19,371 nt of DNA. Source: Gammaproteobacteria bacterium UBA3532 (GTDB lineage Bacteria > Pseudomonadota > Gammaproteobacteria > Enterobacterales > UBA3532). Shown here in pieces: positions 16,115 to 19,371 of the stretch; position 1 is the first letter of the stretch; every line of letters begins with the position of its first letter. The translations under genes and the position numbers were made by a program. Below the pieces are notes generated by a model. The model saw only the letters and a list, made by a program, of their open reading frames with translations, made no database searches and was not told the origin of the DNA. The stretch spans positions 1-19,371 of the forward strand of contig DFOV01000366.1 of NCBI GenBank assembly GCA_002376965.1, given 5' to 3'.

Positions 16115-16149
16115 AGGCGCTCGCCAACAATCATAGAAGCCAGGGGATG
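16093..16149. repeat. Dyad enclosing the ccm promoter and ccmA start codon
   Basis: CATCCCCTG (16093-16101) is perfectly complementary to CAGGGGATG (16141-16149), the latter including the ccmA ATG. Inside, TATGAT (16109-16114, the -10 box) pairs with ATCATA (16130-16135). A GGC/GCC mini-stem (16116-16118 with 16123-16125) sits at the tip. RNA read through from the upstream gene would hide the ccmA start. RNA begun at the internal promoter would lack the left arm. Confidence 0.6.
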
Positions 16150-16779
16150 TATCCGTCTACCAGCCTTGAACTAGACAACCTTCATTGCTTTCGCGATGAA
16201 AGACTACTTATCGACCAGCTCAGTGCTAAGCTGGCCTCAGGTGATTTAGTGCAACTTGCCGGTGTTAATGGTGCCGGAAAAACCACGCTAATCCGCATAT
16301 TAATTGGTTTAAGAACGCCTGACGAAGGGAGGGTTCTCTTTAATGGCGTACCGATCACTGATTGTTATCCCGAGTTCTGTCATGCTTTGTCTTATATTGG
16401 GCATCGTACTGGTAATAAACTATTTCTAAGTGCCAAAGAAAATCTGCATTTCTGTTGCCCCTGGGCCTCTGAGGAAGAGCTGTTAGAAGCGTTAAACCAC
16501 GTCGGGTTATATGGATTTGAAGATAGTCCGCTGCATGCACTTTCAGCAGGGCAGAATCAGCGGGTTGCCCTAGCCAGACTCTTTGTTTCGACGACGCCTG
16601 TCTGGATACTGGATGAGCCTTTTACTGCGCTGGATACAGATGCTATTCATGCCATTGAAAACCTAATGTTGTCCCATTGCCAACGCGGCGGGATTGTGGT
16701 TTTTACTTCGCACCAATCGATGCGTCAACAATCGCAGACTGTGCGCCAGTTGTCGTTAAAAGGAGCGACTAATGCGTAG
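16147..16779 (+). CDS. ccmA: Heme exporter ATP-binding protein CcmA
   Basis: CcmA is the ATPase of the CcmABCD complex. This complex releases holo-CcmE (heme chaperone) into the periplasm during System I cytochrome c maturation. The 210-residue protein has Walker A GVNGAGKTT (39-47), the ABC signature LSAGQ (132-136) and Walker B VWILDEP (152-158). A switch-histidine region follows (VVFTSHQ). ATG at 16147 is preceded by AGGGG directly adjacent, and by AGAAG at 16134-16138 at better spacing. No other good start exists. It overlaps ccmB by 8 nt, so the two are co-translated. It heads a ccmABCDE run, with a promoter and a dyad upstream. Confidence 0.97.
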   Translation: MYPSTSLELDNLHCFRDERLLIDQLSAKLASGDLVQLAGVNGAGKTTLIRILIGLRTPDEGRVLFNGVPITDCYPEFCHALSYIGHRTGNKLFLSAKENLHFCCPWASEEELLEALNHVGLYGFEDSPLHALSAGQNQRVALARLFVSTTPVWILDEPFTALDTDAIHAIENLMLSHCQRGGIVVFTSHQSMRQQSQTVRQLSLKGATNA

Positions 16780-17437
16780 TGTACAAGCGCTTGTCGTTAG
16801 GGATTTGGCACTGGGCATACGCAGGCCATCGGAAATACTAAACCCACTGATTTTTTTCGTGATGGTACTAACGCTGTTTCCTTTGGGAGTTGGTCCAAGC
16901 CCTGAGATTTTAGCTCGAATAGCACCGGGTATCATTTGGGTTGCGGCCTTATTAGCCACCTTGTTAGGGCTTGACTCGCTATTTAGAACAGATTACGAAG
17001 ACGGTGCCTTGGATCAGTTGCTTGTTGGTGGGAACCACTTGCCGCTAATGGCACTCTCTAAAGTGCTGGTGCATTGGATCTTGTCGGCAGTGCCGCTATT
17101 GATTCTAACACCGCTAATGGGCCTTATGATGCACTTGGACTGGGCTGCCATTCGCGTGCTTTGGCTAAGTTTATTGATCGGTAGCCCATTGCTCAGTATT
17201 ATCGGAGCATTAGGTGCCGCTTTAACCGTCGGGGTAAAACGAGGTAGCGTCTTGTTATCTTTGCTTATTTTACCTTTGTATGTACCAGTACTGATCTTTG
17301 GAACCAGCGCTGTGAGCGCTGCGGCTATGGGGCTGGATTACAATGTTCAAATTGCTATCTTGGGGGCTATGTTGGCGCTGGCGTTGAGTTTAGCACCACT
17401 GGTTATCGCTGCAGCACTGCGCGTCAGTGTGTCTTAA
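16772..17437 (+). CDS. ccmB: Heme exporter membrane protein CcmB
   Basis: CcmB is the integral membrane subunit paired with the CcmA ATPase in the cytochrome c maturation complex. The 221-residue protein has the family length and six predicted membrane helices (about 22-40, 50-70, 97-117, 127-152, 157-180 and 192-217). Family motifs are present: VRDLALGIRRPSEILNPL at the N-terminus, LFRTDYEDGALDQLL after helix 2, and GALGAALTVGVKRGSVLLSLL. ATG at 16772 has AGGAG at 16761-16765 and lies inside the ccmA 3' end. A 73-nt gap to ccmC contains a 9-nt direct repeat (TGTATGACT at 17438-17446 and 17457-17465) and no terminator, so the operon probably continues. Confidence 0.97.
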   Translation: MRSVQALVVRDLALGIRRPSEILNPLIFFVMVLTLFPLGVGPSPEILARIAPGIIWVAALLATLLGLDSLFRTDYEDGALDQLLVGGNHLPLMALSKVLVHWILSAVPLLILTPLMGLMMHLDWAAIRVLWLSLLIGSPLLSIIGALGAALTVGVKRGSVLLSLLILPLYVPVLIFGTSAVSAAAMGLDYNVQIAILGAMLALALSLAPLVIAAALRVSVS

Positions 17438-17510: not shown

Positions 17511-18251
17511 ATGTGGCAATGGTTTCATAAATTGGGTTCGCCTAAATACGTTTATCCGTTATGTGGGAAGTTGTTGCCGTGGATGGCATTTTTCACTACT
17601 GCGCTGTTAGTGATCGGAACTGTTTGGGGGTTGTTTTATGCTCCTGCAGACTATCAGCAAGGCAATAGTTTCCGAATTATCTATATCCATGTTCCGTCTG
17701 CTTTCATGTCGATGGGAACATACACCTATATCGCAGTTCTGGCTGCTATTGGTATTATTTGGCGAATGAAGCTGGCTGATATGTTTGCTGTGGCTATAGC
17801 GCCTATTGGTGCTGCATTCACTTTTGTTGCCTTGTTCACTGGTGCAGTATGGGGGAAGCCCACCTGGGGTACATATTGGGTGTGGGATGCGCGTTTGACC
17901 TCTGAGCTTATTCTATTGTTTCTCTACTTTGGTTTGATTGCGCTTTACCATGCGATCGAAGACAAGCAGAAAGCGATTAAAGCTTTCCGTATCCTGGCGC
18001 TTGTGGGTGTAGTGAATGTTCCGATTATTCATTATTCAGTCCATTTCTGGAACACTTTGCATCAAGGCGCAACCTTGTCAAAGTTTGAAAAGCCTTCTAT
18101 GGCGCCAGAGATGTTATGGCCGCTGCTTATAAACATTCTCGGTACGGTGTTGCTATTCCTAACAATAGGAATGATGAGGCTGCGTAATCATATTCTGGTT
18201 AGTGAAAAGAATACCCAGTGGGTCAAGCAGGAGGTGCAACATGTTCTTTGA
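17511..18251 (+). CDS. ccmC: Heme lyase/handling protein CcmC
   Basis: CcmC binds heme at the periplasmic face and attaches it to the chaperone CcmE. The 246-residue protein has six membrane helices and the diagnostic tryptophan-rich WWD domain (GKPTWGTYWVWDARLTSEL, 115-133). The two heme-ligand histidines are in the expected places: His60 in YIHVPSAFM and His184 in FWNTLHQG. Both match the E. coli numbering. ATG at 17511 is preceded by AAGAGA at moderate spacing. It overlaps ccmD by 11 nt. All residues known to be needed are present, so the protein should be functional. Confidence 0.98.
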   Translation: MWQWFHKLGSPKYVYPLCGKLLPWMAFFTTALLVIGTVWGLFYAPADYQQGNSFRIIYIHVPSAFMSMGTYTYIAVLAAIGIIWRMKLADMFAVAIAPIGAAFTFVALFTGAVWGKPTWGTYWVWDARLTSELILLFLYFGLIALYHAIEDKQKAIKAFRILALVGVVNVPIIHYSVHFWNTLHQGATLSKFEKPSMAPEMLWPLLINILGTVLLFLTIGMMRLRNHILVSEKNTQWVKQEVQHVL

Positions 18252-18441
18252 GTCTTGGGCTGAAGTGATCCATATGAACGGGCATGGCGTTTATGTGTGG
18301 TGGTCTTTTGGAGTAACTCTGGCGGTGGTTGTCGGGCTGGTGGTAGAGCCAAAGCTTAAGCAACGTCAGCTTAAACGTGAACTGAAACAATACTATCGTC
18401 GTCAAGAAATGCGGAGTAACAATGAAACCACATCGCCGTAA
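18241..18441 (+). CDS. ccmD: Heme exporter small subunit CcmD
   Basis: CcmD is a small membrane protein that stabilises the CcmABC-CcmE complex and helps release holo-CcmE. The 66-residue protein starts FFESWAEVIHMNGHGVYVWWSF in outline. It has one membrane helix (about 17-38) followed by a strongly basic cytoplasmic tail (KLKQRQLKRELKQYYRR). This is the CcmD pattern, including the conserved GHGxYVW segment. ATG 18241 is chosen over an in-frame ATG at 18202, because CAGGAGGTG (18228-18236) sits just upstream and the longer form adds non-family residues. It overlaps both ccmC (11 nt) and ccmE (20 nt). Confidence 0.93.
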   Translation: MFFESWAEVIHMNGHGVYVWWSFGVTLAVVVGLVVEPKLKQRQLKRELKQYYRRQEMRSNNETTSP

Positions 18442-18862
18442 TCGTTTAATTATCATTTGCCTGAGTGTTGTCGGGCTATCTGTTTGCTTGTTTTTGCTTG
18501 GCTACGCGTTTAAGCAGAATATTAACCTGTATTATTCACCCCATGAGGTGAATGCCGGAGCCGCCCCTATTGGCCCGTCAATTCGTGTTGGTGGCTTGGT
18601 AGTCGAAGGCAGTGTTAAACATGCGGATAAGGGATTAGATGTTAGCTTTGATGTGACTAATGTAAAAGGGACAGTCACCATCCACTATAGTGGGATTTTG
18701 CCTGATCTGTTTCGTGAAGGGCAGGGGATTATTGCGTTGGGAGCGCTAAAAGACAATAACACGCTGGTGGCCAGTGAAGTGCTTGCCAAGCATGACGAAG
18801 AATATATGCCACCAGAAGTGGCTGAGTCACTTAAAGGAACTAAGCACCAACTTCCTGAGTAA
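18422..18862 (+). CDS. ccmE: Cytochrome c maturation heme chaperone CcmE
   Basis: CcmE carries heme covalently in the periplasm from the CcmABCD complex to the ligation complex CcmFH. The 146-residue protein has a single N-terminal membrane anchor (about 8-28) and an OB-fold periplasmic domain (VGGLVVEGSV, TVTIHYSGILPDLFREGQG). The heme-attachment motif is His124-x3-Tyr128 (LAKHDEEYMPPE), equivalent to His130/Tyr134 of E. coli. ATG at 18422, with CGGAGT just upstream, lies inside ccmD. In most System I operons ccmF, ccmG and ccmH follow directly. Here about 250 bp of non-coding sequence and an unrelated gene follow. Confidence 0.97.
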   Translation: MKPHRRNRLIIICLSVVGLSVCLFLLGYAFKQNINLYYSPHEVNAGAAPIGPSIRVGGLVVEGSVKHADKGLDVSFDVTNVKGTVTIHYSGILPDLFREGQGIIALGALKDNNTLVASEVLAKHDEEYMPPEVAESLKGTKHQLPE

Positions 18863-18994
18863 CTTTTTCTAAAACAATGTTGTTAAAATAATAAAGTAGA
18901 CCGCGCAAAACTTCTGATTTGCTCTATTCTCTATCATTGACATAGCCAATCAACAGGCCGAGACTTTGGCAGCTTGTTCGTATGGCTCTAAAAC

Positions 18995-19022
18995 TTGAAT
19001 AAAAGTAATTTGAACCTATAAA
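18995..19022 (+). promoter_or_regulatory. Candidate promoter for the EGKCG-repeat gene
   Basis: The 246-bp gap 18863-19108 holds no gene. TTGAAT (18995-19000) and TATAAA (19017-19022) with 16-nt spacing is the best sigma70-like pair, giving a leader of about 80 nt. An alternative ECF-sigma-like pair is TGAACCT (19011-19017) and GTCACA (19033-19038). A perfect TTGACA at 18937-18942 has no -10 partner. None is strong enough to be sure. Confidence 0.3.
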
Positions 19023-19108
19023 AAAAACGAAAGTCACAGACTGCGTGGGTAACAAGTTAGTAATAATCAAAATCAATAGTAGGCGTATTATTTGTTAGGA
19101 GACAAACA

Positions 19109-19371
19109 ATGGCTAAATATACTAAGAAATCTGTCGCGACCTTGGTTGGCGCTTCTGTAGCAGCGACCTTGTCGCTGGCTTCTGCAGCTAATGCTCAATC
19201 TAACCCTTTTGGCTTTACCGATCTTGAGTCCGGCTTCAATGTCGCTATGGGTGAGGGCAAGTGCGGAGAAGGTAAATGTGGCGAAGGCAAGTGCGGCGGC
19301 GACAAAGCTAAAGAAGGTAAATGCGGCGAAGGCAAGTGCGGCGGCGACAAAGCCAAAGAAGGTAAATGCGG
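19109..19371 (+). CDS. hvfA: HvfA-like secreted EGKCG-repeat RiPP precursor (3' truncated by window)
   Basis: The first 87 residues are visible. A signal peptide (about 1-29, KKSVATLVGASVAATLSLAS, likely cleavage ANA-QS) leads to a short neutral segment (SNPFGFTDLESGFNVAMG). Cysteine repeats follow: six EGKCG motifs begin at residues 49, 54, 59, 69, 74 and 84, the last one cut. They are spaced by GDKAK. Cys residues are 52, 57, 62, 72, 77 and 87. EGKCG repeats behind a signal peptide define HvfA-family precursors. Their cysteines are converted by an MNIO enzyme (HvfB, DUF692) with partner HvfC into oxazolone/thioamide groups that bind copper. AGGAGA (19097-19102) is a good ribosome-binding site 6 nt before ATG. 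Partner genes would lie beyond the window. Family assignment is strong; modification and copper binding are inferred. Confidence 0.87.
   Translation, partial: MAKYTKKSVATLVGASVAATLSLASAANAQSNPFGFTDLESGFNVAMGEGKCGEGKCGEGKCGGDKAKEGKCGEGKCGGDKAKEGKC
19271..19371 (+). repeat. 45-bp tandem repeat inside the EGKCG gene
   Basis: Copies span 19271-19315 and 19316-19360, and a third begins at 19361. The two complete copies differ only at third codon positions (TGT/TGC and GCT/GCC). Each encodes 15 residues containing two EGKCG motifs and one GDKAK spacer. The near-identity points to recent duplication. Confidence 0.92.

What the first reader, a model, noticed from the sequence alone, without database searches (positions are those of the whole stretch)
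19109..19371. HvfA-type copper-binding RiPP precursor at the window edge
A signal peptide is followed by at least six EGKCG motifs at regular spacing. In the HvfA family, each such cysteine is a substrate for an MNIO (DUF692) enzyme that builds an oxazolone/thioamide copper ligand. The gene sits downstream of ccmABCDE. I infer that a maturation cassette (hvfB DUF692, hvfC DUF2063-type partner, and perhaps a DoxX-like hvfD) follows just outside the window, making this an undescribed copper-handling RiPP locus in this organism.
Basis: partly seen in the sequence, partly recalled or inferred. Interest (0 to 1): 0.92.

Follow-up and report, generated by a model that had tools for sequence, protein, structure and literature searches.

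The report
HvfA-type copper-binding peptide gene, contig-split
The window ends inside an ordinary member of a recently described family of cysteine-repeat peptides that bacteria modify to bind copper, and its two predicted maturation enzymes lie at the end of another contig of the same genome.

Summary
ORF 19109-19369(+) has a Shine-Dalgarno-like AGGAG, a signal-peptide-like start and six EGKC units, and runs off the end of the 19,371-base contig C17. It matches the NCBIfam HvfA repeat model (46.2 bits, cut-off 19.5).

The end of contig C310 carries three EGKCG units and the stop of such a gene, then HvfB (MNIO/DUF692; 437 bits, cut-off 360) and HvfC (DUF2063; 307, cut-off 142). The assembly most likely broke inside hvfA.

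Corrections: the next gene is mlaA, not DoxX; the HvfX-type DoxX gene lies on another contig. The Cys product of this family has been reassigned in print from oxazolone/thioamide to 5-thiooxazole. The family is well described (oxazolin, fontiphorin, the Microbulbifer peptide; "captophorins").

Gene order supports the C17-C310 link: in 25 of 45 relatives holding both ccmE and mlaA, the two lie within 12 kb on one strand, and in 5 of those 25 hvfB lies between them. In this genome ccmFGHI lies elsewhere.

Verdict: new member of a known kind. The loose end is the ccm-hvfABC-mlaA position: copper attacks cytochrome c maturation, but inherited position explains the pattern as well.

The parts
19109..19369 (+). 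5' part of hvfA, precursor of a copper-binding RiPP; open at the contig end
   Evidence: Frame open to the end; NF050137 46.2 bits, cut-off 19.5; NF050188 37 bits, cut-off 95, on the cut protein
19097..19101 (+). Shine-Dalgarno-like AGGAG
   Evidence: Read in the sequence, seven bases before the ATG
19109..19195 (+). Likely Sec signal peptide, residues 1-29 (cleavage after ANA)
   Evidence: Judged by eye: basic start, hydrophobic core, ANA-Q; no predictor run
19253..19369 (+). Repeat region with six EGKC units (Cys codons at 19262, 19277, 19292, 19322, 19337, 19367)
16147..16779 (+). ccmA, upstream neighbour
   Evidence: NF010061 249.6 bits, cut-off 195
16772..17437 (+). ccmB, upstream neighbour
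   Evidence: TIGR01190 254.5 bits, cut-off 156.2
17511..18251 (+). ccmC, upstream neighbour
   Evidence: TIGR01191 251.9 bits, cut-off 186
18241..18441 (+). ccmD, upstream neighbour
   Evidence: TIGR03141 62.2 bits, cut-off 25.95
18422..18862 (+). ccmE, upstream neighbour; 246 bases before hvfA
   Evidence: NF009729 192.3 bits, cut-off 171

Best explanation
This is the 5' part of hvfA in a normal hvfABC operon (Buf_EGKCG/oxazolin type, grouped in print as captophorins), split by the assembly in its repeats. Shown by sequence: repeat family, HvfB and HvfC next to the 3' piece, and a gene order in relatives that links the two contigs. Inferred from characterised relatives: HvfC binds the precursor and supports the active iron state of HvfB; HvfB takes four hydrogens from each repeat Lys-Cys to make a copper-binding 5-thiooxazole; the modified peptide is exported by Sec and buffers excess copper in the periplasm. 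HvfX (DoxX type), encoded on another contig, would be an accessory membrane protein of unknown role.
For: NF050137 over cut-off. One PF05114 gene in the genome, E = 1.4e-103, at the end of C310, directly after the 3' end of an EGKCG gene. HvfB 437.2 bits (cut-off 360), HvfC 306.7 (142), HvfX 214.4 (80). HvfB aligns with 3bww (E = 1.3e-80), HvfC with 3dee (E = 8.8e-12). Order ccm-hvfA-hvfB-hvfC-mlaA in five relatives and, from ccmC on, in a Kangiella record. GC of C17 and C310 alike, 0.460 and 0.466. Chemistry and copper binding shown for relatives in PMC13097082, PMC13419390 and PMC12538549.
Against: The C17-C310 junction is not seen in any read and the ends share no exact overlap of 10-60 bases. 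The full-length HvfA model is not reached by the fragment (37 against 95 bits). DoxX is not in the operon. In the HvfB tree the window's protein does not group with the mlaA-type rows: with SH-aLRT 91 it joins two Oleispira rows of the DoxX type, and its nearest rows by path are DoxX type. No copper or chemistry data exist for this organism.
Confidence: 0.87

Rival explanations
1. The frame encodes an unrelated Gly/Cys-rich low-complexity protein that binds metal through plain thiols, without enzymatic modification.
For: Low-complexity repeats can mislead profile searches; Pfam has no match at E <= 1; many relatives are named only 'uncharacterized low-complexity protein' by their source.
Against: HvfB and HvfC follow the 3' end of such a gene directly, and the NPF..L.SGY-like stretch after the signal is shared with precursors next to hvfB in other genomes.
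Confidence: 0.02
2. The C310 piece belongs to a second precursor gene or to a contaminating organism, so the window's hvfA has another, unseen cassette or none.
For: The genome is in 454 contigs, 91% complete, 3.5% contamination; the contig ends do not overlap.
Against: Only these two places match the precursor, one has the start and the other the end; relatives keep ccm-hvfABC-mlaA in this order; GC is alike.
Confidence: 0.06
3. The peptide is a copper-acquisition metallophore, as methanobactin is, rather than a copper buffer.
For: HvfB belongs to the same MNIO superfamily as MbnB (TIGR04159, 45.6 bits); NCBIfam calls the family a metallophore.
Against: The MbnB score is far under its cut-off of 325; [quoted passage not shown] No uptake gene was looked for here.
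Confidence: 0.1
4. hvfABC and mlaA act together, for instance mlaA serving the export or docking of the peptide at the outer membrane.
For: mlaA starts 32 bases after hvfC; 12 of 80 named HvfB loci have mlaA downstream.
Against: 20 of 25 relatives with ccmE and mlaA close together lack hvfB between them; in 5 of the 12 named loci mlaA lies 1.5 to 3.2 kb beyond hvfC.
Confidence: 0.04

Closest known systems
Oxazolin, hvfABCX of non-typeable Haemophilus influenzae
   Same: Signal peptide, EGKCG repeats, HvfB and HvfC over the NCBIfam cut-offs (operon as described in PMC13419390)
   Different: At least nine units if both halves are one gene (six there); hvfX not in the operon; mlaA follows hvfC
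Microbulbifer mmrABC (bulbicupramide)
   Same: Marine-type precursor with EGKCG units and MNIO plus DUF2063 pair (PMC12538549); the Microbulbifer elongatus locus L074 also has mlaA downstream and no DoxX hit in the fetched stretch
   Different: 5-8 Cys per precursor in that paper; no ccm hit upstream in L074
Fontiphorin, fonABC of Fontimonas thermophila
   Same: EGKCG precursor with MNIO and DUF2063 partner; 5-thiooxazole product (PMC13097082 passages)
   Different: Seven sites of modification there; not compared by sequence here
Bufferins (DUF2282 and 6/12-Cys types)
   Same: Secreted MNIO-modified copper chelators (PMC12452194)
   Different: Other precursor type; no DUF2282 match in this genome; BufB model 263.5 bits, under its cut-off of 310
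Methanobactins
   Same: MNIO superfamily enzyme acting on Cys of a peptide
   Different: MbnB model 45.6 bits, cut-off 325; oxazolone/thioamide product, where the EGKCG family makes 5-thiooxazole

Membership tests
HvfA / Buf_EGKCG (oxazolin, captophorin) precursors | Repeated EGKCG motifs; repeat model over cut-off | tested here: met
   Six EGKC units; NF050137 46.2 bits, cut-off 19.5
HvfA / Buf_EGKCG (oxazolin, captophorin) precursors | Full-length HvfA equivalog NF050188 over cut-off | tested here: inconclusive
   37 bits against 95, but on a protein cut by the contig end
HvfA / Buf_EGKCG (oxazolin, captophorin) precursors | N-terminal signal peptide | tested here: inconclusive
   Looks like one by eye; no predictor was run
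HvfA / Buf_EGKCG (oxazolin, captophorin) precursors | MNIO (HvfB) gene next to the precursor | tested here: met
   HvfB 437.2 bits, cut-off 360, 12 bases after the stop of the 3' piece on C310; junction with C17 inferred from gene order
HvfA / Buf_EGKCG (oxazolin, captophorin) precursors | DUF2063/RRE partner (HvfC) | tested here: met
   NF050145 306.7 bits, cut-off 142; PF09836 and PF22106
HvfA / Buf_EGKCG (oxazolin, captophorin) precursors | DoxX-type HvfX in the operon (common, not universal) | tested here: not met
   HvfX over cut-off exists but on C96; mlaA follows hvfC. Absent also from the Microbulbifer cluster as described and from 12 of 80 loci with mlaA
HvfA / Buf_EGKCG (oxazolin, captophorin) precursors | Loss of 4 H per Cys to 5-thiooxazole; copper binding | not testable with these tools
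   Needs mass spectrometry and NMR
Methanobactin | MbnB equivalog over its cut-off | tested here: not met
   TIGR04159 45.6 bits, cut-off 325
Buf1 bufferin | DUF2282 precursor and BufB maturase | tested here: not met
   No PF10048 match in the genome; NF050167 263.5 bits, cut-off 310

The most novel reading that the evidence does not exclude
The copper peptide sits between the cytochrome c maturation genes and mlaA because it guards c-type cytochrome assembly, a known target of periplasmic copper: hvfABC would be a locally placed copper buffer for the thiols of that pathway in some Gammaproteobacteria. No paper joining the two was found in the searches, which cover only the held open-licence library.
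Probability: 0.13. Interest if true: 0.5.

Novelty: new member of a known kind. Interest (0 to 1): 0.24.

Why it matters
It shows how a fragmented assembly can cut a repeat-rich RiPP gene in two and hide it from annotation. It adds a locus with probably nine or more copper sites, and it points to ccm-hvfABC-mlaA as a recurring gene order. That order allows a simple test: does losing the copper peptide harm cytochrome c maturation under copper stress?

Tried and rejected
A functional hvfABC-mlaA unit was considered, because 12 of the 80 named HvfB loci kept have mlaA downstream and no DoxX hit in the fetched stretch. It was downgraded: ccmE and mlaA lie within 12 kb on one strand in 25 of the 45 relatives that hold both, 20 of them without hvfB between, so mlaA is an old neighbour of ccm.

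A shared new home for the unlinked HvfX gene was looked for. Here it lies beside a sohB-like gene (named by eye). Blast with that gene and its two other neighbours found none of them in the 4,000 to 7,001 bases fetched around HvfX in 12 mlaA-type genomes (0 of 12).

A single origin of the mlaA arrangement was tested on a quick tree of 98 HvfB proteins: the label needs 5 changes, and holding the 20 rows together is not rejected (AU p = 0.306), so the tree does not decide. The window's protein itself falls near DoxX-type rows. A first tree had 91 rows, because 7 loci with the match on the minus strand were dropped; one search restored them. Architecture labels in both were typed by hand.

The promoter and terminator scan of 18800-19200 gave two promoter-like sites, both on the - strand (chance 0.9), and no terminator. 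DUF2282 was not found in the genome. Two literature searches on copper and cytochrome assembly gave 1 and 3 papers, of which only PMC8456105 was opened.

Full report
OBSERVATION. The window is the complete contig C17 of the held genome (4,012,724 bases in 454 contigs, 91% complete, 3.5% contamination). Its last reading frame, 19109-19369(+), starts with ATG seven bases after AGGAG. It encodes MAKYTKKSVATLVGASVAATLSLASAANAQ, then SNPFGFTDLESGFNVAMG and six EGKC units, and is open at the contig end. Unit starts are at residues 49, 54, 59, 69, 74 and 84; shuffling residues 31-87 gave at most 2 units in 100,000 trials. NCBIfam's HvfA repeat model matches at 46.2 bits (cut-off 19.5); the full-length HvfA model gives 37 bits (cut-off 95), as can happen with a cut gene. 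Pfam has no match. A protein search found 331 matches at E <= 0.001 among 341 candidates; of the 120 listed, several carry 'HvfA family' in the name given by a source.

THE OTHER HALF. One PF05114 (MNIO) gene was found in the genome, on C310. The window's precursor matches two places: itself and the end of C310. Read from that end, C310 gives EGKCGGSKKAKEGKCGEGKCGS and a stop. hvfB follows 12 bases later, hvfC starts at the end of hvfB, and mlaA starts 32 bases after hvfC. HvfB and HvfC pass the NCBIfam equivalog cut-offs (437.2 against 360; 306.7 against 142). MlaA is named by Pfam (PF04333, 251 bits, cut-off 25); the NCBIfam MlaA equivalog is under its cut-off (150 against 375). The two contig ends share no exact overlap of 10-60 bases; the last unit of C17 and the first of C310 differ at 2 of 14 bases. 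If both belong to one gene, it has at least nine units.

GENE ORDER. Searches of 59 genomes (the own and 58 relatives of the same order) with HvfB, CcmE and MlaA were tabulated from typed coordinates. Of the 58 relatives, 46 have a CcmE match, 55 a MlaA match and 45 both. In 25 of the 45 the two lie within 12 kb on one strand, and in 5 of the 25 (G007, G014, G031, G052, G058) hvfB lies between. Of 17 relatives with a close HvfB (57% identity or more), 7 have it linked to mlaA and 6 to ccmE. Fetched stretches of the five show ccmA-B-C-E-F-G-H, then hvfA-hvfB-hvfC-mlaA; ccmI was matched before hvfA in three of them and not in L125 and L127, and ccmD was not among the queries. A named Kangiella record shows the same order from ccmC on. 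So the window's ccmE-hvfA end and C310's hvfA-mlaA end are neighbours in relatives, which supports the link. In the window's genome ccmFGHI is absent from this place and lies on C149; a second ccm set lies on C229.

DoxX. The genome has two DoxX (PF07681) matches over the cut-off, on C96 and C115. The one on C96 is an HvfX equivalog (214.4 bits, cut-off 80), and a search with that family found only this one. Of the 80 named HvfB loci kept (552 stretches encoded a relative), 12 have mlaA downstream and no DoxX hit in the fetched stretch. In 5 of these 12, mlaA lies 1.5 to 3.2 kb beyond hvfC. 47 have a DoxX hit after hvfC. The other 21 are neither: 4 have DoxX before hvfB, 1 has it 1.8 kb after hvfC, and 16 show none in what was fetched, some of it short.

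PRECURSORS IN RELATIVES. Of the 80 named loci, 60 show a reading frame with four or more KC[GAS] motifs, holding 4 to 16 KC; 20 show none by that rule, in some because the contig ends there. The stretch after the signal, NPF..L.SGY with variations, recurs in the 15 loci printed and resembles the window's NPFGFTDLESGF.

MECHANISM. Shown here: families, order, motifs. HvfB aligns with 3bww (E = 1.3e-80) and HvfC with 3dee (E = 8.8e-12). DVNN and DTH motifs are present in HvfB; PMC13419390 reports N175, D242 and H244 of H. influenzae HvfB as needed for activity (section 23), and their match to these motifs is my inference. Taken from papers: HvfB with HvfC turns each repeat Cys into a copper-binding 5-thiooxazole, reassigned from oxazolone/thioamide (introduction of PMC13419390; passages of PMC13097082). 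The Microbulbifer relative loses 4 H per Cys and its product is a copper chelator (abstract, section 8 and part 1 of section 9 of PMC12538549). Bufferins enhance growth under copper stress, and about 2,000 EGKCG precursors were collected (start of the abstract and passages of PMC12452194). Inferred: periplasmic copper buffering in this organism.

A SPECULATIVE LINK. [quoted passage not shown] 2015, which I did not read. That gives a motive for placing a copper peptide within the ccm array. But 20 of the 25 ccm-mlaA relatives lack hvfB there, so simple inheritance of position is enough. Searches for MNIO with MlaA and DUF692 with MlaA found no paper, and MNIO with 'cytochrome c maturation' found two papers on plant mitochondrial genomes. 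Terms beginning with ccm, MlaA or VacJ do not occur in the main texts of PMC12452194, PMC13097082 or PMC12538549.

VERDICT. A sound observation and a mostly correct prediction of an ordinary family member; modest interest.

Noticed in passing
C149:6305-10895(+) and C229:105-7134(+) of the window's genome (L120, L121): The window's ccm set stops at ccmE; ccmFGHI lies alone on C149, and a second ccmABC(D)E-F-G-H-I set lies on C229. Only one CcmE was matched in each of the 46 relatives that have one.
   Followed up: partly
C96:309-839(-) of the window's genome (L086): HvfX-type DoxX gene away from hvfABC; the same separation in 12 of 12 other mlaA-type genomes searched.
   Followed up: partly
window 19088-19369(-): A 93-residue frame open on the strand opposite hvfA; probably only a mirror of the repeat's composition.
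   Followed up: no
L035:6866-7604: In Aliamphritea spongicola the HvfC match falls into three pieces, as if the frame were broken.
   Followed up: no
L131 (G013:C59:1000-12000): A relative with ccmA-I followed by mlaA and no hvf genes between, the likely arrangement without the insertion.
   Followed up: partly
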